DNA of 64,000 bases from Roseivirga misakiensis (GTDB taxonomy: Bacteria > Bacteroidota > Bacteroidia > Cytophagales > Cyclobacteriaceae), in contig NZ_MDGQ01000004.1 of NCBI RefSeq assembly GCF_001747105.1, forward strand, positions 62,001-126,000. Reading direction: 5' to 3'. This document shows, piece by piece, positions 24,318 through 51,677 of this stretch. Below the pieces are notes generated by a model that saw nothing but the letters and a program-made list of their open reading frames with translations, had not been told where the DNA came from and searched no databases. Positions within the stretch are counted from its first letter, which is position 1. The number at the start of each line of letters is the position of its first letter. A program made the translations under genes and the position numbers.

Positions 24318-24347
24318 AATATTTAATAATAATATTTATTAAATATT
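24318..24347. repeat. Perfect AT-only inverted repeat after argH
   Basis: AATATTTAATAA, a 6-nt spacer, and TTATTAAATATT: 12-bp arms made only of A and T, overlapping the argH stop codon. It sits between argH and the LytM pair on the same strand. It could be a weak terminator, an mRNA 3' hairpin or a protein-binding site; the sequence alone does not decide. Confidence 0.6.
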
Positions 24348-25680
24348 ACGATGAGACTAACTGCTTTATCCTAGTATTCCATACAGCAAAGTTGAATTGT
24401 TCAACCACCGTTTCCTTCAAGCTTTGAATCTCGTCTAAGTTCAATTGTCCAATACTACCTTCATGGGAGTGATTCACGAGTTTTTGAGGGTTGAATTCTC
24501 CTTTTTCAATCGCAAGGCCCACTTGTTTGTAAGCGTCTCGAAATGGCACACCGCTCAACACCAACTTATTCGTTTCCTCTACGCTGAAGAGATATTTGTA
24601 TTTGTCCTTATCAACTAGGCCAGTACTGATAACTACTTTTTGAAGCATAAAATCGCACATAAATAAGCAGTCTTTCAAATCCTGAATTGCCGGAAAAAGG
24701 ACTTCCTTAATCAGTTGCATTTCTCTATGGTACCCGACGGGTAAATTCGCAGTTAACAAAGCAATATCATTGGGGAGCGCTTGAATTCGATTACACTTAC
24801 CCCGCATTAATTCAAATACGTCTGGGTTTTTCTTATGAGGCATAATACTCGACCCCGTTGTCAGCTCATCTGGAAAGGAAAGAAAACCAAAGTCTTGCCC
24901 CATATACAAACAGACATCCATGGCAAATTTAGAAAGCGAACCAGCGACTGCCGCCATACCAGTAGCTAAAGACTTTTCGGCTTTTCCGCGCCCCATCATG
25001 GCATAAACCACGTTATAATTCAAATCTTCGAAGCCTAATAAATCTGTTGTCAAACGACGGTTTAATGGGAATGATGATCCGTAACCCGCCCCAGAACCCA
25101 GCGGGTTTTTATTGACGATTTTATAGGCAGCATGAAGCACGTGTAAGTCATCGACCAAGCTTTCGGCATAGGCGCCAAACCAAAGGCCGAAAGAAGATGG
25201 CATAGCTACTTGCATATGGGTATACCCAGGCATTAAAGTTTCCTTATGCCGATCGCTCAGCAAAAGTAAACGATCAAAAAGTGTCGAAACTCCATGGGTT
25301 ATTTCTTGGATTTCCTGCCGCATAAATAGCTTCAGATCAACTAAAACTTGATCGTTTCGTGACCTGCCACTATGGATCTTCTTGCCCACATCACCTAAAC
25401 GATCGGTCAGCAAAAGCTCGATTTGAGAATGTATATCTTCAACACCAGACTGAATTTCAAAATCACCGTCCGCTATATCTTGATAAATGGACTTCAATTC
25501 TTTATGAATCAGTGCTTTCTCTTGTTGCTCTAATAAACCAATCGAAGCCAACATTTCGGTGTGTGCCAATGAGCCTAGCACATCATAAGGCGCCAATTGA
25601 ATATCAAATTCCAAGTCTCGACCGACGGTATAGCGTTCTACAATTTCAGAGACATTTGTTTCTTTTTGCCAGAGTTTCAT
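24346..25680 (-). CDS. argH: Argininosuccinate lyase
   Basis: Last enzyme of arginine synthesis: splits argininosuccinate into arginine and fumarate. A 444-residue member of the fumarase/aspartase superfamily. The superfamily signature GSSIMPHKKNPD lies at about 279-290, and the substrate-binding blocks SGRSRNDQV (about 103-111) and TPGYTHMQ-like PGYTHMQVAMPS (about 150-161) are present. It is the last gene of the arg operon, 42 bp behind the deacetylase gene, and an AT-only palindrome follows its stop. Confidence 0.96.
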   Translation of the reverse strand: MKLWQKETNVSEIVERYTVGRDLEFDIQLAPYDVLGSLAHTEMLASIGLLEQQEKALIHKELKSIYQDIADGDFEIQSGVEDIHSQIELLLTDRLGDVGKKIHSGRSRNDQVLVDLKLFMRQEIQEITHGVSTLFDRLLLLSDRHKETLMPGYTHMQVAMPSSFGLWFGAYAESLVDDLHVLHAAYKIVNKNPLGSGAGYGSSFPLNRRLTTDLLGFEDLNYNVVYAMMGRGKAEKSLATGMAAVAGSLSKFAMDVCLYMGQDFGFLSFPDELTTGSSIMPHKKNPDVFELMRGKCNRIQALPNDIALLTANLPVGYHREMQLIKEVLFPAIQDLKDCLFMCDFMLQKVVISTGLVDKDKYKYLFSVEETNKLVLSGVPFRDAYKQVGLAIEKGEFNPQKLVNHSHEGSIGQLNLDEIQSLKETVVEQFNFAVWNTRIKQLVSS

Positions 25681-25722: not shown

Positions 25723-26784
25723 CTAAAGTAGTTTGTCCAGAATTTTAATGTAGTCTTTAATTCCGTTTTCAATTTCAGACAAGTAAATATATTCATCAGC
25801 GGTGTGCGATCTTGCCGAGTCGCCAGGCCCCAGTTTCAAAGACGGAAAGGGCATTAAAGCTTGATCGGAAAGTGTAGGCGATCCATAAGTTTGTTTGCCC
25901 AGTTCAAGACCCGCTTTTACAATGGGATGATTCTTTGGAATACCAGATGGATTTAGCCGAGTGGACCTTGGTTTTACAGTGCTACTTACGTTTTCCTCAA
26001 TGATTTTGAGCGTTTCTAGGTTAGACAAAATATCCGTAGTCCGAACATCCACCACAAATTTGCATTCATCAGGTACTACATTGTGCTGTTTTCCTGCTTC
26101 TATGACCGTAACGCTCATTTTAATAGGCCCCAGAGTCTCAGATATCTCCTCAAATTCATGAGTTTTAAACCAATCAATATCTTCAATGGCCTTGTAAATT
26201 GCATTTTTTCCTTCATTTCTGGCGGCATGCCCTGATTTTCCCTTGGCCACACAGTCCAACACCATCAACCCCTTTTCAGCAATGGCCAAATTCATTTGTG
26301 TGGGTTCTCCAACTATCGCAAAATCAATCGCTGGTAAATGGGGCACAAGATTTTCTATACCTCCTTTTCCTGAGATTTCTTCCTCCGCTGAGGCGGCTAA
26401 AATCAGATTGTAAGCCAAATTCGGTTTGGCATAATAATTCAAGAAGGTGGCTATTAAAGAAACCAAACAGCCTCCTGCATCATTACTTCCTAAACCGTAT
26501 AACTTTTCGTCTTCTATTTTCGCGTCAAAGGGGTCATTTGTATACCCACTGTTGGGCTTCACTGTATCGTGATGCGAGTTGAGTAAAATGGTCGGTTTAT
26601 TGGGGTCAAAATTTAAATTCTTGGCCCATATGTTGTTTCCAACTCTATCAACTGCAACTGCTTTCTTGCTCAAGAAATCACTAATAATATCAGCAGTTTG
26701 ATCTTCTTCTTTACTAAAAGACGGTGTTTTAATAAGTGCTTTCAGTAGGTCAACTGCCTCGATCGTTAATGCATCCATTGCCAT
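25723..26784 (-). CDS. M20 deacylase of arginine synthesis (N-acyl-citrulline deacylase type)
   Basis: A zinc M20 hydrolase of 353 residues. The metal-binding motifs are SHHDTVKP (about 68-75), GLGSNDAGGC (about 93-102) and SAEEEISG with the catalytic Glu pair (about 131-138), with a dimerisation domain between about 165 and 270. Because the operon carries ArgF' rather than an ornithine carbamoyltransferase, the expected substrate is N-acetyl- or N-succinyl-citrulline, giving free citrulline for ArgG, not acetylornithine. The start is the ATG at 26784, overlapping the argB stop by one base (TGATG); the ORF can be read from a TTG one codon earlier. Confidence 0.88.
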   Translation of the reverse strand: MAMDALTIEAVDLLKALIKTPSFSKEEDQTADIISDFLSKKAVAVDRVGNNIWAKNLNFDPNKPTILLNSHHDTVKPNSGYTNDPFDAKIEDEKLYGLGSNDAGGCLVSLIATFLNYYAKPNLAYNLILAASAEEEISGKGGIENLVPHLPAIDFAIVGEPTQMNLAIAEKGLMVLDCVAKGKSGHAARNEGKNAIYKAIEDIDWFKTHEFEEISETLGPIKMSVTVIEAGKQHNVVPDECKFVVDVRTTDILSNLETLKIIEENVSSTVKPRSTRLNPSGIPKNHPIVKAGLELGKQTYGSPTLSDQALMPFPSLKLGPGDSARSHTADEYIYLSEIENGIKDYIKILDKLL

Positions 26785-27572
26785 CAATTTATGGTGATTT
26801 TAGTTCCTAATTCACCAAGTAACAAGGCTTTTAGCGACTGAAATGAACCGATTTTAACTTGGTGAACTCCACCTTCAAGTGCATTGAAGGCATTGTCTAG
26901 TTTCGGGATCATCCCTGCATGAATTGTACCCTCACTTTTCAGCTTATCGTACCGATCTCTGTATAAAACCTTAATAACTATTTTCTTTCCAAAGTCTTCC
27001 AAAACGCCGTTTTGTTCAAAGCAGTAAATCAAATTTACTCGGTAGTTTTCAGCCATAGCCACGCCTAAGATACTCGCAATAGTATCAGCATTTGTATTAA
27101 GTAAATTACCCTGCTTGTCATGGGTCAATGGGCAAAAAACCGGTGTCAATTCGGCTTCAATCAACTTAGACAAAGTGGATACGCCAACATCCTCCTTTGT
27201 CACATCTCCTACAAAACCATAATCCACTTGTGAAACGGGTCTTTTGACCGCCGACATTACATTGGCGTCTGCACCCGTCAATCCTATGGCATTTTCTGAT
27301 CTTGCTTGCAGTTGGGCTACAATATTTTTATTGACCAAACCACCATAAACCATGATCACTAGTTCTAAAGTTGGTGCATCCGTAATTCTTCGTCCATCAA
27401 TGAGTTTAGGGGTTATTCCCAATCGCTCTCCAAAATCGGATGCCACTTTACCTCCACCGTGAACTAGTATTTTCGGGCTAGGTACATCGGTAAAAGCATC
27501 CAGAAAAGATGCAAGGGCTTCGTGGTCATCAATCACCTTACCCCCGACTTTGACTATTGTTAACTCCTTCAT
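26784..27572 (-). CDS. argB: N-acylglutamate kinase
   Basis: Phosphorylates N-acetyl-glutamate (or N-succinyl-glutamate) in arginine synthesis. A 262-residue amino-acid kinase with the N-terminal phosphate loop IVKVGGKVIDD (about 5-15), the VHGGGKVASD block (about 37-46) and GLTGADANVMSA (about 97-108). It is on the short side of the family and lacks the N-terminal helix used by arginine-sensitive hexameric NAGKs, so direct feedback inhibition may be absent; that is inference. It overlaps argF' by 4 bp. Confidence 0.93.
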   Translation of the reverse strand: MKELTIVKVGGKVIDDHEALASFLDAFTDVPSPKILVHGGGKVASDFGERLGITPKLIDGRRITDAPTLELVIMVYGGLVNKNIVAQLQARSENAIGLTGADANVMSAVKRPVSQVDYGFVGDVTKEDVGVSTLSKLIEAELTPVFCPLTHDKQGNLLNTNADTIASILGVAMAENYRVNLIYCFEQNGVLEDFGKKIVIKVLYRDRYDKLKSEGTIHAGMIPKLDNAFNALEGGVHQVKIGSFQSLKALLLGELGTKITIN

Positions 27573-28510
27573 TTTAAAAGTTCGTTTAAAATGGACTGCG
27601 CTGCATAAACTCGGTTCTCAGCTTGTTCTAAATGAATGGCATTTTTGCTATCGAGTACTTCATCCTTAATCACCAAACCTCTTCTCACTGGCAAACAGTG
27701 CATTACCTTGGCATTATTCGTAAGTGACAATTGTTTTTGACCGAAAGTCCATTTTTCATCCTGAGATAATACTTGGCCGTAATGCTCATAAGATGACCAG
27801 TTTTTAACATAGACAAAATCTGCACCTTCCAAAGCCTCAGCTTGATCATGAAAAACCGAAACTCCATTGCTAAATTCAGGTGCCAGATCATAACCTGCTG
27901 GGTTAGCAATAGAAAAATCTACGTCTGCTTGGATCATCCATTCAGCAAATGAGTTTGGCACCGCTTGAGGCAAGGCTTTCACGTGAGGTGCCCAGGTCAG
28001 AACCACCTTTGGTTTATGCGAATGGGGCCATTGTTCTTGAATGGTCATCAAGTCCGCTAAGCTTTGTAAAGGATGTCTTGTGCCACTTTCCAAACTCACT
28101 ACCGGAATACCTGCGTATTTGATGAAAGACTGAAGGAGTATTTCAGCATAGTCCTCTGACCGATCGGTCAAACCGGGAAAAGTTCTAACACCTAGAATAT
28201 CAAAATATCTGCCCATCACCGCCGCGGCTTCTCGAATATGTTCTGCCTTATCGCCATTCATGACTACGCCATCATTGAATTCTAAGGCCCAACCATCCTT
28301 ACCAATGTCCAATACAATAGCCTCAGCCCCTAAATTCTGGGCAGCAACTTGTGTACTTAACCTTGTTCTAAGACTCGGATTCAAAAAAACTAAGCCCACT
28401 TTTTTCCCTTTTCCGAGCTCGGATTGGAACGGATTATTTTTGAATAAAATAGCCTGTTCGACTAACTGATCAACGTTTTGGACATCTGCTATGCTCGTAA
28501 AATGCTTCAT
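27569..28510 (-). CDS. argF': N-acyl-ornithine carbamoyltransferase (ArgF')
   Basis: A 313-residue transcarbamylase. The carbamoyl-phosphate loop FLNPSLRTRLS lies at 42-52 and HPLQSLADLMTI at about 146-157, and the late motif HCLPVRRGLVI is typical for the AOTC/SOTC group (ornithine enzymes have HCLP-x-H). It carbamoylates N-acetyl- or N-succinyl-ornithine. The specificity-determining spot in the GDKxEH segment holds Ala89. From memory, the Bacteroides succinyl enzyme has Pro there and the Xanthomonas acetyl enzyme Glu, so the substrate of this protein is not settled by that residue. 4-bp overlaps on both sides. Confidence 0.92.
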   Translation of the reverse strand: MKHFTSIADVQNVDQLVEQAILFKNNPFQSELGKGKKVGLVFLNPSLRTRLSTQVAAQNLGAEAIVLDIGKDGWALEFNDGVVMNGDKAEHIREAAAVMGRYFDILGVRTFPGLTDRSEDYAEILLQSFIKYAGIPVVSLESGTRHPLQSLADLMTIQEQWPHSHKPKVVLTWAPHVKALPQAVPNSFAEWMIQADVDFSIANPAGYDLAPEFSNGVSVFHDQAEALEGADFVYVKNWSSYEHYGQVLSQDEKWTFGQKQLSLTNNAKVMHCLPVRRGLVIKDEVLDSKNAIHLEQAENRVYAAQSILNELLK

Positions 28511-29628
28511 AATTCTTTCTTTAAAGCATCAAAAAACTGATCTAGTTCTTCCTGTGTTACGGCTAAAGAAGGCAGTAAACGAAGAGTTTGTTTGTCTGCG
28601 GCAGAACCAGTAAAAATGTGATGCTCAAAAAGCAGCTTTTTTCTAAGTTCAGCTACAGGAAAGTCGAAAGCTGCACCGACCATTAAGCCTTTTCCACGAA
28701 TTTCCTTGACAGCATTGATATCCCCTAATTGCTCAACTATATATGCTCCCATTTCTGTGGCATTTTTCATTAGCCCCTCTTCGGCAAGTACCTCAAGCAC
28801 CGACAACCCTGCTGCGCAGGCCAGATGGTTACCTCCGAAAGTAGTCCCTAACATACCATGCCATGGCTCTAGTTTAGGGTTAATCAGCACACTCGCCACT
28901 GGAAACCCATTACCCATACCCTTTGCTAGGGTGATAATATCTGGTCTAATATTAGCGTATTGATGGGCGAAAAACTTACCTGTTCTTCCCGCCCCAGATT
29001 GTACTTCATCCAGAATAAAAACTGCATCGTGTTGCTCGCATAAGTCCTGAGCTTTTTGAAGGAATTGACTCGTTGCTTCAAAAAGCCCCGCCACCCCCTG
29101 AATTGGTTCGATGATAAAACCAGCCACCTCGTCGTTAAAGGCTAATTCAAGTGCCTCACAATCATTTAATGGTACAAATTCTACTTCGTGATCGGCATTA
29201 TATGGCGCAATAATTTTCGGGTTGTGAGTAGCAGCCACTGCACCAGAAGTTCGCCCATGAAAAGCATTTTCCACGGCAATAATTTTCTTTCTCCCCGTGT
29301 GAAAGGAAGCCAGTTTCAAAGCATTCTCGTTGGCCTCAGCTCCAGTGCTGCATAGAAATAAGTTATAGTCATAGTAGCCCGAAATCTGGCCTAGTTTCAA
29401 GGCCAATTCACCTTGCAAACTGTTCTGAACTGCATTGGAGTAAAAACCGATTTTGTTAAGCTGCTCGGTGACGTTTTTAACATAGGTCGGATGACTATGA
29501 CCTATTGATATTACGGCATGACCACCATATAAATCCAGATATTCGGCTCCATTTTTATCCCAAAGTTTAGATCCCAGCGCTTTGACGGGTTCTATCGGGT
29601 AAAGTGGGTATACATCAAACATTTCCAT
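28507..29628 (-). CDS. argD: N-acylornithine aminotransferase
   Basis: PLP class-III aminotransferase of 373 residues that makes N-acylornithine from the semialdehyde. The PLP-binding segments are CSTGAEANENALKLA (about 92-106), FHGRTSGAVAATHNP (about 123-137), the Asp of FILDEVQSGAGRTG (about 199-212) and the lysine of TLAKGMGNGFPVA (about 233-245). It ends with the typical C-terminal domain LLPSLAVTQEELDQF. It overlaps argF' by 4 bp and touches argC by one base, so it is translated from the same mRNA. Confidence 0.94.
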   Translation of the reverse strand: MEMFDVYPLYPIEPVKALGSKLWDKNGAEYLDLYGGHAVISIGHSHPTYVKNVTEQLNKIGFYSNAVQNSLQGELALKLGQISGYYDYNLFLCSTGAEANENALKLASFHTGRKKIIAVENAFHGRTSGAVAATHNPKIIAPYNADHEVEFVPLNDCEALELAFNDEVAGFIIEPIQGVAGLFEATSQFLQKAQDLCEQHDAVFILDEVQSGAGRTGKFFAHQYANIRPDIITLAKGMGNGFPVASVLINPKLEPWHGMLGTTFGGNHLACAAGLSVLEVLAEEGLMKNATEMGAYIVEQLGDINAVKEIRGKGLMVGAAFDFPVAELRKKLLFEHHIFTGSAADKQTLRLLPSLAVTQEELDQFFDALKKEL

Positions 29629-30581
29629 CAGAAAGCCCCTCCTTTTAATTTCAGCCCAGTAGTCTCTTCCAAACCAAACATCAAATTCATGTTTTGAACA
29701 GCTTGGCCAGACGCTCCTTTCAACAAATTATCAATTACCGACTGGATCATTAAATATCCGTTGTGCATGGTTAGGTTAACGAAACATTTGTTGGTGTTGA
29801 CAACTTGTTTGACATCTAAAGGTCGCTCGCTCACGCTAACAAATGGATGATCTTGATAGTACTCTTTATATACTCTGATCGCTTCTGCCAATGGCCACTC
29901 GCAGTACTGATAAGCGGTGACAAGGATTCCTCGCGTAAAATTTCCACGATAAGGAATGAAATTTAATGGCTGATCGAACCAAGGTTGATATTGCATCAAA
30001 CTCTTCGTCACTTCTGCCATATGCTGATGGTTGAAAGCTTTGTAAGTAGATACATTACTATCTCGCCAGCTAAAATGAGTCGTTTGAGACGGCTGAAAAC
30101 CCGCTCCTGTCGATCCTGTGATTCCCGAAATATGAACTTCTTTCAAGGCCCCATTATGGGCTAGAGGAAGCAGCGCCAATTGAATTGCCGTAGCGAAACA
30201 ACCTGGGTTCGCGACATAATTTGCGGATTGAATCGACTCTTTATTTAATTCAGGTAGGCCATAAACCTTGTCATTATCTAATCGGAAATCCTGGCTCAAA
30301 TCTATCACTTTGACGTGAGCTGGTATTGAATGCTGACTTATGAATTCTGAGGATGCACCATGCCCCATACAGAGAAAAAGAACATCTATTTGAAAATTTA
30401 AATCAGCGGAGAAAGTCAATTCTATCTCTCCAAGAAGATCAGGGTGCACAGTATGAAGCTTTTCACCCGCTTGGCTTCTGCTTTGAACAAAAATGATTTC
30501 TACTGACGGATGATTGAGCAGCAATCGAACAAGTTCTCCACCAGTATAGCCTGCCCCTCCTATTATTCCTACTTTAATCAT
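29628..30581 (-). CDS. argC: N-acyl-gamma-glutamyl-phosphate reductase
   Basis: Reduces N-acylglutamyl phosphate to the semialdehyde with NADPH. A 317-residue protein with a Rossmann start VGIIGGAGYTGGELVRLL (3-20) and the catalytic cysteine in the block NPGCFATAIQLALLPL (about 127-142). The GITGSTGAGFQPSQTTHFSWR segment (about 152-172) is the usual substrate loop. It overlaps argG by 4 bp. Confidence 0.95.
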   Translation of the reverse strand: MIKVGIIGGAGYTGGELVRLLLNHPSVEIIFVQSRSQAGEKLHTVHPDLLGEIELTFSADLNFQIDVLFLCMGHGASSEFISQHSIPAHVKVIDLSQDFRLDNDKVYGLPELNKESIQSANYVANPGCFATAIQLALLPLAHNGALKEVHISGITGSTGAGFQPSQTTHFSWRDSNVSTYKAFNHQHMAEVTKSLMQYQPWFDQPLNFIPYRGNFTRGILVTAYQYCEWPLAEAIRVYKEYYQDHPFVSVSERPLDVKQVVNTNKCFVNLTMHNGYLMIQSVIDNLLKGASGQAVQNMNLMFGLEETTGLKLKGGAF

Positions 30582-31774
30582 GAGTCTCCATTTACTTGGT
30601 GATAAATCGCATTTTGATTACCAAAGATTTTGGCAAACCCTTTGACATCATCTCCCGACCATGTCTTGTTCATTTCACCATAGTGACCAAACTTAGCGGA
30701 CATTAAATCGTGATCAGATTCTATTCCATTTACTTGATAGCGATAAGGTAAAAGGGTCATAAATACTTTCCCTGTGACATTCTGCTGTGTGCTATCCATC
30801 ATAGCCTCCATGTCGCGCATTACTGGATCCATAAATTGGCCTTCGTGAAGCCAGTTGCCGTAGAAAGCAGCGATTTGGTCTTTCCAATAAATCTGCCACT
30901 TGGTTAACACGTGTTTTTCTAAAGCTTGATGAGCTTTTATAGTGAGCAACGCCGCCGCCGCTTCAAAACCAACGCGTCCTTTTATACCAATGATAGTATC
31001 TCCTACATGGATATCTCGGCCTATTCCAAAAGGTCCAGCGAGGGTTTCTAAGTATTGGATAGCCTCATGTGATTTGTCAAAACGCTTCTCATTCACTGTT
31101 TTTAGTTCCCCATTTTCAAAGCCAAGCGTTAGCTCCTCGGCTTTGTCTTTGGTGACTTGGGTCGGAAAAGCACTTTCTGGCAAGTATCCATTCGACGTTA
31201 AAGTTTCCTTTCCGCCAACTGACGTACCCCACAACCCTTTATTGATAGAGTAAGCAGCTTTTTCAAAGTCCATCTCCACACCTTTCGTTTTAAGATATGC
31301 TATTTCCTCCTCTCTGGATAGCTGTAAATCACGGATGGGCGTGATGATTTCGGCTTCAGGTAGAAAGCTTTGAAAAATCATGTCAAAACGAACCTGATCA
31401 TTTCCTGCACCGGTACTACCATGCGCTATATAATCGGCATTCAGAGATTTTGCATGTTTGGCAATGGCGATCGCTTGACTTACCCTTTCGGCACTTACAG
31501 ACAGTGGGTAGGTGCTGTTCTTTAAGATATTCCCATAAATCAAGTATTTAACTACACTTTGATAGTAATTCTCAGTCTCTTCAACCGTAGTATGACTTTT
31601 TACTCCCAGTTCGTAGGCTCTTTTCTCCACTTCTACCAATTCATCTTTTGTGAAGCCACCTGTGTTGACCAATACGGAATGAACTTCTAGACCTTTGTCG
31701 TCTTTTAGATATTTTACGCAGTAGGATGTATCTAGTCCGCCACTATAGGCCAATACGACTTTCTTATTTTCCAT
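30578..31774 (-). CDS. argG: Argininosuccinate synthase
   Basis: Joins citrulline and aspartate using ATP. The ATP-pyrophosphatase loop is VVLAYSGGLDTSYCVKYL (6-23), followed by the HGSTGAGNDQVRFD block (about 117-130) and the SINKGLWGTSVGG segment (about 187-199). 398 residues, normal for the family. The start overlaps the end of the GNAT gene by 11 bp, so ribosomes can pass directly from the acetyltransferase gene to argG. Confidence 0.96.
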   Translation of the reverse strand: MENKKVVLAYSGGLDTSYCVKYLKDDKGLEVHSVLVNTGGFTKDELVEVEKRAYELGVKSHTTVEETENYYQSVVKYLIYGNILKNSTYPLSVSAERVSQAIAIAKHAKSLNADYIAHGSTGAGNDQVRFDMIFQSFLPEAEIITPIRDLQLSREEEIAYLKTKGVEMDFEKAAYSINKGLWGTSVGGKETLTSNGYLPESAFPTQVTKDKAEELTLGFENGELKTVNEKRFDKSHEAIQYLETLAGPFGIGRDIHVGDTIIGIKGRVGFEAAAALLTIKAHQALEKHVLTKWQIYWKDQIAAFYGNWLHEGQFMDPVMRDMEAMMDSTQQNVTGKVFMTLLPYRYQVNGIESDHDLMSAKFGHYGEMNKTWSGDDVKGFAKIFGNQNAIYHQVNGDS

Positions 31775-32441
31775 TTTTATTCTTTTTTGCTTCTCGTTTG
31801 AGTAAGACTGTTTTCTTAAATTTTAACCAGCGTTCAAAGAGCTTTAAATCTTTATCTAACTCTCTACCCTTCCATTGGGTGCGCTTCGGTTTTTGATCTT
31901 TTTCCCATGCAGGGTTGTACAACATCGCTGTGCAAATGCAGTTTTGCCGCTTCTTGGCTGTAAGAATATCAAAATTGATACAGCTTTGGCAACCCTTCCA
32001 GAACTCTTCATCTTGAGTTAACTCTCCGTAAACGACGGGCTTATAACCTAGTTCTGAGTTAATCTTCAAAACAGCTGCTCCTGTTGTTAAGCCGAAAATT
32101 TTGGCCTTAGGATACTTTTTCCCCGATAGCTTGAAAGTGGCTTCCTTGATTTTTTTCGCCAGACCCGCCCCTCGAAACTTTTGAGATACGATTAGGCCTG
32201 AATTGGCAACAAATTGACCGTGGCTCCAAACTTCGATGTAACAGAAACCTGCCCATTCGCCGCTTTTTGTAGTCGCTATAATGGCTTTGCCTTCCTCGAT
32301 CTTCTTAGATACATATTCAGGCGTTCGTTTCGCGATACCCGTACCACGTACTTTGGCCGAATCAGCGATCTCTTGTACGATCTCTTGGGCATAGCCTACA
32401 TCCGATAATTCGGCTGCTCTAATGATGAATTGTTTTTTCAT
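31764..32441 (-). CDS. GNAT N-acetyltransferase, probable first enzyme of arginine synthesis
   Basis: A 225-residue GNAT-fold protein when started at the ATG at 32441 (MKKQFIIRAAELSDV); an in-frame ATG at 32483 would add 14 residues. The acetyl-CoA loop is VSQKFRGAGLAKKIKEAT (the R-G-x-G-L-A form, about 90-108 of the shorter protein). C-terminal extension is basic and Cys-containing (CQSCINFD, NCICTAML). The cluster contains no argJ or classical argA, and this gene heads the operon with an 11-bp overlap into argG. So it most likely makes N-acetyl- (or N-succinyl-) glutamate. The assignment rests on context, not on a specific motif. Confidence 0.75.
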   Translation of the reverse strand: MKKQFIIRAAELSDVGYAQEIVQEIADSAKVRGTGIAKRTPEYVSKKIEEGKAIIATTKSGEWAGFCYIEVWSHGQFVANSGLIVSQKFRGAGLAKKIKEATFKLSGKKYPKAKIFGLTTGAAVLKINSELGYKPVVYGELTQDEEFWKGCQSCINFDILTAKKRQNCICTAMLYNPAWEKDQKPKRTQWKGRELDKDLKLFERWLKFKKTVLLKREAKKNKNGK

Positions 32442-32571
32442 TTTAGAATAATCACCATTCAAAATATTCGGCTGAAAAGTCATGCCAATACTTTGACTTT
32501 AGTTGTTAATTATGAGTAATAAATACGATCTGGGGAATTGATGACCACCACATAGGCGGTCGAAATGATAT

Positions 32572-32586
32572 AGGCGCTTAGCGCCT
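32572..32586. promoter_or_regulatory. Stem-loop at the stop codon of the arginine leader ORF
   Basis: AGGCGC TTA GCGCCT: six perfect base pairs with the TAA stop of the leader ORF (minus strand) in the loop. The same AGGCG arm could instead pair with CGCCT of a second hairpin at 32543-32561 (7-bp stem with one G-U). The two structures are thus mutually exclusive options that a stalled ribosome could choose between. No U-tract follows either one. Confidence 0.5.
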
Positions 32587-32673
32587 CCTGTTCCTTGCCC
32601 TAAGTACAATAGCTTCCATGGCTACTTGAGATAGCGCTAGGGTTGGGTAATATGTAGAAGCTGCTGCTTGCAT
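32578..32673 (-). CDS. Arginine leader peptide (31 aa), candidate attenuator of the arg operon
   Basis: A 31-codon ORF (MQAAASTYYPTLALSQ followed by 15 more residues) on the minus strand. Its last seven codons read R-A-R-N-R-R-R, so five of seven specify arginine, just before a TAA stop that lies in the loop of a 6-bp hairpin. It begins 16 nt after a promoter (TTTG-N19-TTCCTTTG, 32720-32690) and ends 137 bp before the GNAT start of the arginine operon. Short leader ORFs rich in the end-product amino acid are the hallmark of ribosome-mediated attenuation (known for his, trp, thr and leu operons). No Rho-independent terminator follows, so the mechanism, if real, must be Rho-dependent or translational. 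Confidence 0.55.
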   Translation of the reverse strand: MQAAASTYYPTLALSQVAMEAIVLRARNRRR

Positions 32674-32689
32674 TTCCTTATTGAGACAA

Positions 32690-32720
32690 CAAAGGAAGTG
32701 AAAAGTTTATAAATGGCAAA
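32690..32720 (-). promoter_or_regulatory. Promoter of the arginine leader and operon
   Basis: On the minus strand a TTTG (32720-32717) is followed after 19 nt by TTCCTTTG (32697-32690). This is one mismatch away from the Bacteroidota -7 box TAnnTTTG at ideal spacing. The leader ATG is 16 nt downstream. It is the only good promoter candidate in the 347-nt region between the PD40 gene and the operon. Confidence 0.55.
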
Positions 32721-32830
32721 CTTGAGGATTAGAATCAGTCGTTTTTTAAACGATCCACCCGACTATTACCTTCTAACTGTCAAGTTGAAAACAGTAAGAA
32801 TCGACTATACAGAACTTTAACTAATTGGTT

Positions 32831-33937
32831 TTATCCCCCAATCCACTCGGCTACGAATAGGTTAGTATCTCTACCACCGCCGTTATTTCTATTGGATGAG
32901 AATACAATATGCTTACCGTCATTCGAGAAAACTGGGAAAGCATCGAAGGTTTCGTCTCTGGTGATTCGGGTTAACCCAGTGCCATCAATGTTGATCATAT
33001 AGAGATTGAAAGGGAATCCTCTTGTCGCCGTGTGATTTGAAGCGAAGATAATTTTCTCACCAGATGGATGGAAAAATGGTGCCCAGTTGGCTTGCCCTAA
33101 ATCTGTCAATTTTCTTAAATCAGAACCGTCGGCATTACAGATATAGAGCTCCATATCTGTAGGCATCACCAAACCTTCTTTCAACAAGTCTTGATATACC
33201 TTTATGTCCTCATCAGTCTTTGGTCTAGAAGACCTGAAGATTAATTTAGAACCATCAGGAGAGAAAAAAGCGCCTCCATCATAGCCAAGTTCATTGGTAA
33301 TTTGCTTAACGTCAGAACCATCTACATTCATTGTGAATAATTCTAGATCGCCAGTTCTCATGGAAGTAAAGACGATTTTATCACCTTGCGGAGATACAGT
33401 AGCTTCCGCGTCATAACCTTCATTTGTGGTCAATTGGTCGATGATATTACCGTCTAAGTCGGCAGTGAAAATATCGTAATCGGGATAAATCGGCCATACA
33501 TACTTACCATCTTCTCGACGTTCAGGAACAGCAGGGCAGTTTTTATCACCCAAATGAGTAGATCCATAAACAATGGTCTTGTTATCGGCCAAAAAGTAAG
33601 AACATGTTGTTCTGCCTAAGCCTGTGCTTACCATTTGCGGTTTATTATTCTTTAAATCATCATTTCTCCAATCGGTGATAAACATTTGATCACACCCTAC
33701 ACCCCACTCTGCGTAGTCCGACTGAAATACCAAGTGCTTATCATCGAAGCTCCAATAAGCCTCTGCATTATTTCCACCAAACGTCAACTGTTTTATGTTT
33801 TTTAGGTATTTCATTTCTTCAGGGTGAAGCAACAATGAATCCTGTTTAGACCTAGGTTCGACTACATTCGTCTCTTCCGTTTTTTGCGCCCCACAACCGA
33901 AAACCAAAAGGATGAGAAAAACTGATATATATCGCAT
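32831..33937 (-). CDS. Lipoprotein with TolB-like PD40 beta-propeller
   Basis: A 368-residue lipoprotein (lipobox VFGC, Cys15). The mature part consists of PD40/WD40-like blades recognised by repeated [F/I]-x-S-x-R/D-G motifs: EAYWSFDDKHLVFQSD, EATVSPQGDKIVFTSMRTGD, GAFFSPDGSKLIFRSSR, APFFHPSGEKIIFASNH, FPVFSNDGKHIVFSSNR. Such propellers occur in TolB and in periplasmic binding proteins; this one has no attached peptidase or OmpA domain. It diverges from the M28 peptidase gene, with 68 bp between the starts. Role unknown, probably protein or glycan binding at the envelope. Confidence 0.85.
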   Translation of the reverse strand: MRYISVFLILLVFGCGAQKTEETNVVEPRSKQDSLLLHPEEMKYLKNIKQLTFGGNNAEAYWSFDDKHLVFQSDYAEWGVGCDQMFITDWRNDDLKNNKPQMVSTGLGRTTCSYFLADNKTIVYGSTHLGDKNCPAVPERREDGKYVWPIYPDYDIFTADLDGNIIDQLTTNEGYDAEATVSPQGDKIVFTSMRTGDLELFTMNVDGSDVKQITNELGYDGGAFFSPDGSKLIFRSSRPKTDEDIKVYQDLLKEGLVMPTDMELYICNADGSDLRKLTDLGQANWAPFFHPSGEKIIFASNHTATRGFPFNLYMINIDGTGLTRITRDETFDAFPVFSNDGKHIVFSSNRNNGGGRDTNLFVAEWIGG

Positions 33938-51034: not shown

Positions 51035-51106
51035 GGTCCGTTCGTCTAGGGGTTAGGACGCCAGGTTTTCATCCTGGTAACAGGGGTTCGATTCCCCTAC
51101 GGACTA
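51035..51106 (+). tRNA. tRNA-Glu (anticodon TTC)
   Basis: A 72-nt tRNA. Acceptor GGTCCGT/ACGGACT (one G-U) with discriminator A at 51106, D-loop CTAGGGGTTAGGA, anticodon arm CCAGG TTTTCAT CCTGG giving UUC for Glu, T-arm CAGGGGTTCGATTCCCCTA. It lies 12 nt after tRNA-Ser. Its last ten bases form the start of the first unit of the downstream 124-bp repeat array. Confidence 0.97.
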
Positions 51107-51645
51107 CTTTAAGGAGCTCAGCTTAATGCTGAGCTTTTTTTATGTCCTATGGGGGCTTACACTACAGGCTGGCCCTTCGCTATATTCTTCCGCTGGAAGA
51201 ATCTTTAACGCTTAGTCCTCCTACGGACTACTTTAAGGAGCTCAGCTTAATGCTGAGCTTTTTTTATGTCCTATGGGGGCTTACACTACAGGCTGGCCCT
51301 TCGCTATATTCTTCCGCTGGAAGAATCTTTAACGCTTAGTCCTCCTACGGACTACTTTAAGGAGCTCAGCTTTATGCTGAGCTTTTTTTTGTGCCCTAGG
51401 GGGCTTACCCTCCAGGCTGGCCCTTCGCTATATTCTTCCGCTGGAAGAATCTTTAACGCTTAGTCCTCCTACGGACTACTTTAAATGAGCTCAGCTTAAT
51501 GCTGAGCTTTTTTTATGTCCTATGGGGGCTTACACTACAGGCTGGCCCTTCGCTATATTCTTCCGCTGGAAGAATCTTTAACGCTTAGTCCTCCTACGGA
51601 CTACTTTAAATGAGCTCAGCTTAATGCTGAGCTTTTTTTATGCCC
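51097..51645 (+). repeat. Tandem 124-bp repeat array beginning inside tRNA-Glu
   Basis: About 4.4 tandem units start at 51097, 51221, 51345, 51469 and 51594 (periods 124, 124, 124, 125). Each begins with the final ten bases of tRNA-Glu (CTACGGACTA, 51097-51106), then CTTTAA, the terminator AGCTCAGC-TTAAT-GCTGAGCT plus seven T, and a spacer holding a perfect 8-bp hairpin ATTCTTCC-GCT-GGAAGAAT and the sequence TAGTCC, which can pair with GGACTA of the next unit. Units are nearly identical except unit 3 (several changes) and units 4 and 5 (AAATGAGC instead of AAGGAGC). Unit 5 stops after the terminator. The layout equals that of rtT repeats at E. coli tyrT. Confidence 0.92.
51115..51141 (+). terminator. 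Terminator of the tRNA operon (first of five copies)
   Basis: AGCTCAGC (51115-51122), loop TTAAT, GCTGAGCT (51128-51135), then TTTTTT. Repeated with the array at 51239-51265, 51363-51389 (loop TTTAT), 51488-51514 and 51613-51639, so transcription of the tRNA operon meets up to five terminators in series. Confidence 0.9.
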
Positions 51646-51677
51646 TTAGCGAAAAAACATTTAAGAGTAAAAAGTAA

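What the first reader, a model, noticed from the sequence alone, without database searches (positions are those of the whole stretch)
32543..32720. Arginine-rich leader peptide before a complete arginine operon
Seen: a 31-codon ORF (32578-32673, -) whose last seven codons are Arg-Ala-Arg-Asn-Arg-Arg-Arg. The TAA stop lies in the loop of a 6-bp hairpin, with a second hairpin (32543-32561) that can compete for the same arm. A Bacteroidota-type promoter precedes it (TTTG-N19-TTCCTTTG), and the arginine operon follows on the same strand. Established: end-product-rich leader ORFs mark ribosome-mediated attenuation (his, trp, thr, leu operons). Inference: arginine shortage stalls the ribosome on the Arg run and switches the RNA structure. 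No U-tract terminator is visible, so control must be Rho-dependent or translational. Arginine-specific peptide attenuation has not, to my knowledge, been shown in Bacteroidota.
Basis: partly seen in the sequence, partly recalled or inferred. Interest (0 to 1): 0.75.

Follow-up and report, generated by a model that had tools for sequence, protein, structure and literature searches.

The report
Arginine-sensing leader peptide switch
In front of a marine bacterium's arginine-making genes lies a tiny arginine-rich gene followed by two RNA hairpins, and similar arrangements recur in front of the same genes in many related bacteria that lack the usual arginine repressor, so it is most likely how they sense an arginine shortage.

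Summary
The 31-codon ORF (32578-32673, -) ends Arg-Ala-Arg-Asn-Arg-Arg-Arg, its stop codon is the loop of a 6-bp hairpin (P1), and a GNAT-argGCDF'BEH operon follows. Outside the family 28 of 44 loci pass.

New: a second hairpin (P2, 32543-32561) with a UAYGN loop and covarying stem (strict scan: 78 of 130 loci); a P1-P2 gap of about 12 nt; the same layout behind a His leader before hisG in the own genus. ArgR and this operon type coincide in only 2 of 198 phylum genomes, both doubtful.

Not supported: competing hairpins; in the folding model P2 mostly forms with or without a stalled ribosome. No U-tract terminator is visible.

Best reading: ribosome-mediated attenuation on arginyl-tRNA; transcription ends near or after P2, perhaps by Rho. 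Sensing is well supported by comparison; the output step is inferred, without expression data.

The parts
32690..32720 (-). promoter-like boxes TTTG (32717-32720) - N19 - TTCCTTTG (32690-32697)
   Evidence: read; TTCCTTTG identical in 10 of 12 aligned sequences; consensus type recalled, start not mapped
32578..32673 (-). leader ORF, 31 codons, last seven R A R N R R R (AGG GCA AGG AAC AGG AGG CGC), stop TAA
   Evidence: Arg-rich short ORFs at this place in 110 of 130 family loci
32650..32655 (-). ACATAT motif inside the leader; ACATA[TG]C recurs in relatives; role unknown
   Evidence: ACATA[TG]C in 28 of 76 leader regions against 1.1 (maximum 4) in mononucleotide shuffles; this window has the shorter ACATAT
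32572..32586 (-). hairpin P1, AGGCGC-TAA-GCGCCT, holds the last two Arg codons; stop codon is the loop
   Evidence: stem of at least 5 bp in 71 of 76 loci against 25.2 (maximum 32) in shuffles
32562..32571 (-). linker between P1 and P2, 10 nt here; median 12 nt in 76 loci
   Evidence: 71 of 76 loci have 8-15 nt against 19.4 (maximum 27) in shuffles
32543..32561 (-). hairpin P2, 7 bp, pentaloop TATGT (family consensus UAYGN)
32505..32542 (-). G-poor, pyrimidine-rich tract behind P2 (ATCAATTCCCC...), possible Rho loading or termination region
   Evidence: G 3-7% at +10 to +34 behind P2 in 104 loci; AATTCCC also behind P2 of the own his leader; function inferred
31764..32441 (-). GNAT-type N-acetyltransferase, first gene of the operon, candidate N-acetylglutamate synthase (ORF also open from 32483)
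   Evidence: weak family match, below cut-off; role recalled from operon context
30578..31774 (-). argG, argininosuccinate synthase
29628..30581 (-). argC
   Evidence: above cut-off
28507..29628 (-). argD
27569..28510 (-). N-acetylornithine carbamoyltransferase (argF')
   Evidence: above cut-off
26784..27572 (-). argB
   Evidence: above cut-off
25723..26787 (-). ArgE/DapE-family deacylase
   Evidence: below cut-off
24346..25680 (-). argH
   Evidence: above cut-off

Best explanation
A ribosome-mediated attenuator of the arginine operon that reads arginyl-tRNA charging, in this group mostly through AGG codons at the end of a short leader ORF. Supported by comparison: the Arg-codon leader, P1 holding the last Arg codon with the stop in it or shortly behind it, a linker of about 12 nt and P2 with a UAYGN loop recur in front of the operon in lineages without ArgR. 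Inferred: with enough arginine the ribosome finishes the leader and leaves, P1 folds behind RNA polymerase (its distance to P2 matches that of pause hairpins) and transcription ends near P2 or in the G-poor tract behind it, perhaps with Rho. When arginine is short, a ribosome stalled on the later Arg codons keeps P1 open and polymerase runs on into the operon. The direction of the switch is inferred from the need to induce a biosynthetic operon on starvation.
For: Arg-rich leaders in 110 of 130 family loci against 13.9 in shuffles and in 28 of 44 loci outside the family against 5.5. AGG is 279 of 442 leader Arg codons against 167 of 1393 in the GNAT genes. Peptide sequence diverges while Arg codons stay. 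P1 in 71 of 76, linker 8-15 nt in 71 of 76, both far above shuffles. P2 stem covaries. ArgR nearly absent from the family and nearly exclusive with this operon type. A His leader with the same layout precedes hisG in the own genus. A ribosome on the last Arg codon or the stop abolishes P1 in the model. Precedents for Arg-codon sensing and for Rho after full leader translation: speF orf34 and mgtL (PMC6386406, passages), rbfL (PMC13009471, passages); pause hairpins sit 11-12 nt from the RNA 3' end (PMC12288461, passages).
Against: No expression, 3'-end or ribosome data. No U-tract terminator, and no mutually exclusive structure was found: P2 forms in most modelled states. A ribosome on the first Arg codon leaves much of P1 (3.2 of 4.7 local pairs). 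20 of 130 family loci and 16 of 44 outside loci miss the 3-Arg test; three of the ten closest named loci have only 2 Arg. The strict P2 scan fails in 52 of 130 loci, including the RRPRPARFARI subgroup.
Confidence: 0.75

Rival explanations
1. Same sensing, but the output is translational: ribosome position on the leader changes folding around the start of the GNAT gene, or terminating ribosomes re-initiate there.
For: No terminator is visible; hairpins near the gene start can be read in some relatives; speF and rbfL are partly or wholly translational.
Against: Distance from P2 to the gene match varies from 35 to 176 nt and some genus members carry extra sequence between P2 and the gene; no structure at the gene start was found conserved, though I ran no dedicated test for one.
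Confidence: 0.2
2. P2 is itself an unusual intrinsic terminator with a degenerate U-tract, and Rho is not needed.
For: His leaders of some genomes (L135, L136, L142, L346-L348) have a hairpin followed by a U-run at the corresponding place; some arg P2 hairpins are followed by 5-6 T (for example L105, L120).
Against: T is only 33% and 24% in the first two five-base bins behind P2 over 104 loci; other hairpins in this window do have U-runs; P2 is not switched by the ribosome in the model.
Confidence: 0.2
3. The conserved thing is an RNA structure only (P1 and P2, for RNA stability, pausing or a binding factor); the Arg codons are a by-product because P1 and purine-rich AGG repeats happen to encode Arg.
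For: AGG lies in or beside the P1 5' arm in 69 of 76 loci, which forces some Arg; P2 loop is conserved on its own.
Against: Arg excess reaches beyond P1 (last 14 codons); the RRPRPARFARI subgroup uses CGA and CGC as well; leaders before hisG are His-rich instead in 28 of 30 family loci; the genes behind make arginine.
Confidence: 0.05

Closest known systems
Ribosome-mediated transcription attenuators of his, trp, leu, thr operons (recalled)
   Same: short leader ORF rich in codons of the end product, stop codon within a hairpin, operon of the same pathway behind
   Different: no canonical U-tract terminator and no terminator/antiterminator pair found; arginine as the sensed amino acid; two hairpins that coexist
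speF orf34 of Salmonella and mgtL (PMC6386406, passages only)
   Same: leader with AGG and other rare Arg codons (speF); no intrinsic terminator, Rho involved; for mgtL full translation promotes Rho termination
   Different: other phylum and genes; in speF translation of the leader counters Rho and mRNA decay is part of the control; no UAYGN hairpin described in the passages seen
rbfL of Staphylococcus aureus (PMC13009471, passages only)
   Same: leader peptide that senses arginine shortage through AGA/AGG codons
   Different: acts by blocking the next gene's ribosome binding site and controls a biofilm regulator, not arginine synthesis
Leader-peptide attenuators reported in Flavobacterium psychrophilum (PMC9723704, section 19 and passages)
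   Same: same phylum; clues for leader peptides before amino-acid operons, conserved 5' elements before hisG and pheA
   Different: arginine not named in what I read; supplement not read
Bacteroid-trp RNA, Rfam RF01692 (PMC2864571, table row seen)
   Same: cis-regulatory RNA candidate of Bacteroidetes; that it carries a Trp leader ORF is recalled
   Different: no match in 0 of 60 family genomes nor at this locus
Fungal arginine attenuator peptide (recalled)
   Same: arginine-linked upstream ORF
   Different: there a conserved peptide stalls with arginine in excess; here the peptide diverges and Arg codons are kept

Membership tests
ribosome-mediated attenuator (his/trp type) | leader ORF with a run of codons for the end product, before the matching operon | tested here: met
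ribosome-mediated attenuator (his/trp type) | leader conserved in relatives above chance | tested here: met
   110 of 130 against 13.9 in shuffles; 28 of 44 against 5.5
ribosome-mediated attenuator (his/trp type) | intrinsic terminator with U-tract | tested here: not met
   none behind P2 here; T not enriched behind P2 over 104 loci
ribosome-mediated attenuator (his/trp type) | mutually exclusive terminator and antiterminator | tested here: inconclusive
   P2 forms in most modelled ribosome states; only P1 is ribosome-sensitive; long-range options not excluded
ribosome-mediated attenuator (his/trp type) | induction by starvation for the amino acid | not testable with these tools
   no expression data
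Rho-dependent leader attenuator (mgtL, speF type) | C-rich, G-poor unstructured tract downstream | tested here: inconclusive
   G 3-7% and T up to 50% at +10 to +34, C 31-35% at +0 to +9; could also be an ordinary 5' UTR
Rho-dependent leader attenuator (mgtL, speF type) | termination relieved when Rho is inhibited | not testable with these tools
   bench test
ArgR regulation | ArgR gene in the genome | tested here: not met
   no PF01316 match in the own genome; 2 of 148 family genomes, in ORFs of 304 and 489 codons
Bacteroid-trp RNA RF01692 | match to the Rfam model | tested here: not met
   no match in 31700-33900 at E up to 5; 0 of 60 family genomes, strict filters
any other Rfam riboswitch or leader family | match to an Rfam model | tested here: not met
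   none; whole window: two tRNAs only; 7 relatives: one chance-level lncRNA match below gathering score

The most novel reading that the evidence does not exclude
A modular attenuation cassette of this part of the Bacteroidota: one RNA chassis (pause hairpin over the stop codon, gap of about 12 nt, UAYGN hairpin, G-poor tract) serves both the arg and the his operon of the genus with only the sensor codons exchanged. It ends transcription without an intrinsic terminator, through polymerase pausing with Rho or with a factor that reads the UAYGN loop, and leader peptides take the place of ArgR in the lineages that carry the GNAT-type arginine operon.
Probability: 0.3. Interest if true: 0.8.

Novelty: new variant of a known kind. 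Interest (0 to 1): 0.62.

Why it matters
Control of arginine synthesis in bacteria is usually told as a story of ArgR (recalled). Here lineages of Bacteroidota with the GNAT-type operon lack ArgR and carry an arginine leader instead, which would explain how they control the pathway. The tight P1-P2 spacing and the conserved P2 loop, shared with a his leader of the same genus, give a defined RNA module with which attenuation without a canonical terminator can be tested directly.

Tried and rejected
Competing P1/P2 hairpins: P1's 5' arm could pair with P2's 5' arm in this window (AGGCG with CGCCU), but reading the relatives the option does not recur, and the model has both hairpins together. Pairing of the leader's ACATA motif with the P2 loop fits TATGT loops (this window and some relatives) but not the commoner TACGT, so it was not adopted. 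A helix ACATAGC with GCTATG inside the leader is clear in most of the LRRFRNSFRA-type leaders but not in the others.

P2 as an element of many operons: model R1 gave 27 hits at E up to 10 in 19 genomes; by my reading 11 are arg leaders (11 of the 13 own-genus genomes), 2 his leaders and 14 neither. E-values of the arg and his sites are weak (0.07 to 8.2) and the own P2 is part of the model, so their meaning rests on position. A pattern search in the own genome gave 6 hits against 6 for the reversed control, only the arg and his sites fitting. The strict P2 was in 0 of 30 hisG upstream regions of other genera and relatives; R1 and reading found it before hisG only in the own genus.

Limits of the controls: searches use dinucleotide shuffles; searches use mononucleotide shuffles; one search used stretches chosen for pairing; none corrects for kinship. 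The his-leader script missed at least one His leader (L135, seen).

Literature: searches listed no arginine leader peptide of Bacteroidota; most subscription papers are not held and the supplement of PMC9723704 was not read. PMC4833913, PMC8632094 and PMC4997734 were seen in passages only and gave no closer match; PMC4997734 mentions a carA leader peptide of Pseudomonas aeruginosa.

Full report
Setting. The window lies in a genome of 4,449,419 bases in 5 contigs. Its closest named relatives by the GNAT protein are Roseivirga, so the own genus is probably Roseivirga, in the Cytophagales (ranks from record titles and recall). The operon on the minus strand reads GNAT, argG, argC, argD, N-acetylornithine carbamoyltransferase, argB, ArgE-like deacylase, argH.

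Observation. In an alignment of 12 sequences (own, 10 named loci, one unnamed genus member) the leader start, the AGGCG-stop hairpin and the second hairpin line up, and TTCCTTTG is identical in 10 of 12.

Is the leader real? The GNAT protein was found in 135 of 148 family genomes. I took the upstream region of 130 of these 135: 30 loci and 100 of the other 105; 5 were not fetched and second matches in three genomes were dropped. An ORF of at least 12 aa with at least 3 Arg in its last 14 codons, within 330 to 30 nt before the match, is present in 110 of 130, against a mean of 13.9 (maximum 17) in 20 rounds of dinucleotide shuffles and 34 of 130 on the other strand; with at least 4 Arg, 72 against 2.8 and 8. 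Outside the family 28 of 44 loci pass, against 5.5 (maximum 10) in shuffles and 12 antisense; these 44 are the best-scoring non-family loci returned by the order and phylum searches, not a random draw. Of the 10 closest named loci (L193-L202) 7 pass the 3-Arg test, the other three ending in a leader with 2 Arg by my reading, and all 10 show the P2 hairpin.

Codons. The leaders use AGG for 279 of 442 Arg codons in their last 14 codons, the GNAT genes for 167 of 1393. In the 76 leaders with a strict P2 it is 206 of 257 against 111 of 811; in 17 leaders of the RRPRPARFARI kind CGA is favoured, 27 of 82 against 20 of 228. Peptide endings differ between subgroups while Arg codons stay.

P1. In the 76 leaders with a strict P2 and at least 2 Arg, the best hairpin between the last nine codons and P2 has a stem of at least 5 bp and score of at least 11 in 71 (25.2 in shuffles, maximum 32), has AGG in or beside its 5' arm in 69, encloses the stop codon in 35, and ends 8-15 nt before P2 in 71 (19.4 in shuffles, maximum 27), median 12. 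The stop codon lies 4-20 nt before P2 in 73 of 76 (in the other three, 45-53 nt, the scan probably chose another ORF), so the RNA spacing is tighter than the coding one.

P2. A strict scan found P2 behind a short ORF in 78 of 130 loci; bulged or variant versions are visible by eye in others, and the RRPRPARFARI kind lacks it. Anchored only on YAYG 8-36 nt after the stop (104 of 130 loci; such a tetranucleotide is common by chance), the first seven flanking pairs form in 64-92% of loci, against 38-66% when partners are permuted; the eighth does not differ. On 55 stretches chosen for pairing, 91.6% of cells pair and the covariation score is 1.03, against 0.25 shuffled and at most 0.21 slid. Behind P2, G is 3-7% between +10 and +34.

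What changes with the ribosome? With a ribosome mask on the RNA (76 leaders), P1-local pairs fall from 4.7 (free) to 3.2 (A site on the first Arg codon), 0.1 (last Arg codon) and 0 (stop), while P2 has mean probability 0.77, 0.84, 0.86 and 0.59. The ribosome-sensitive element is thus P1, not P2. [quoted passage not shown] the P1-P2 gap has this size, hence the proposal that P1 is a pause hairpin with polymerase held at the foot of P2. That is inference.

ArgR. PF01316 matches 2 of 148 family genomes, in ORFs of 304 and 489 codons, and not the own genome. In a phylum sample 73 of 198 genomes have an ArgR match, 83 of 198 the GNAT gene, 44 neither and 2 both: one with five identical partial matches in 127-codon ORFs, one with a weak match in a 312-codon ORF (Fisher p 4e-20, not corrected for kinship).

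A shared chassis. R1, a model of P2 alone, hits the own genome three times at E up to 10: the arg leader, a site inside a long ORF, and a site behind a short ORF ending HHFHHLG directly before hisG. That his leader has ACATATCGC near its start, a hairpin over its stop, a linker, a P2 with loop UACGC and AATTCCC behind it; the arg leader has ACATAT, P1, linker, P2 and AATTCCCC. Two more genus members show P2 between a His leader and hisG (G448; G057). In 30 hisG loci of the wider family none has the strict P2; 28 have a His-rich leader by script, 21 of these with the stop inside a hairpin and 5 with a U-run behind.

Conclusion. Arginine sensing by a leader peptide is well supported by comparison; how the signal reaches the operon is not settled. 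In logic it works like the his/trp attenuators; in lacking a visible intrinsic terminator it is closer to the Rho-linked mgtL and speF leaders (passages of PMC6386406). No Rfam family matches it. I rate it a new variant of a known kind.

Noticed in passing
window 51096-51646: Tandem array, 4.4 copies of a 124-bp unit directly behind tRNA-Glu (51035-51107); each unit repeats the tRNA 3' end (CCTACGGACTA) and a terminator-like hairpin.
   Followed up: partly
own genome contig C5 471517-471537 (L340), and L342, L339: His-rich leader with the same hairpin layout before hisG in the own genus.
   Followed up: partly
[quoted passage not shown]
   Followed up: no
L193, L194, L196, L197 between P2 and the gene: Extra sequence with GTCATT...GAAGCAATCTC-like stretches, perhaps a dispersed repeat, inserted between P2 and the GNAT gene.
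   Followed up: no
Pedobacter loci such as L208, L213-L215, L293, L294: A well conserved leader-like ORF ending SRQNFTPRI with only 2 Arg ends about 100 nt before the GNAT match.
   Followed up: no
L176, L180, and family hisG loci such as L141: The ACATATC motif also occurs between the leader stop and the next hairpin; its role is unexplained.
   Followed up: no
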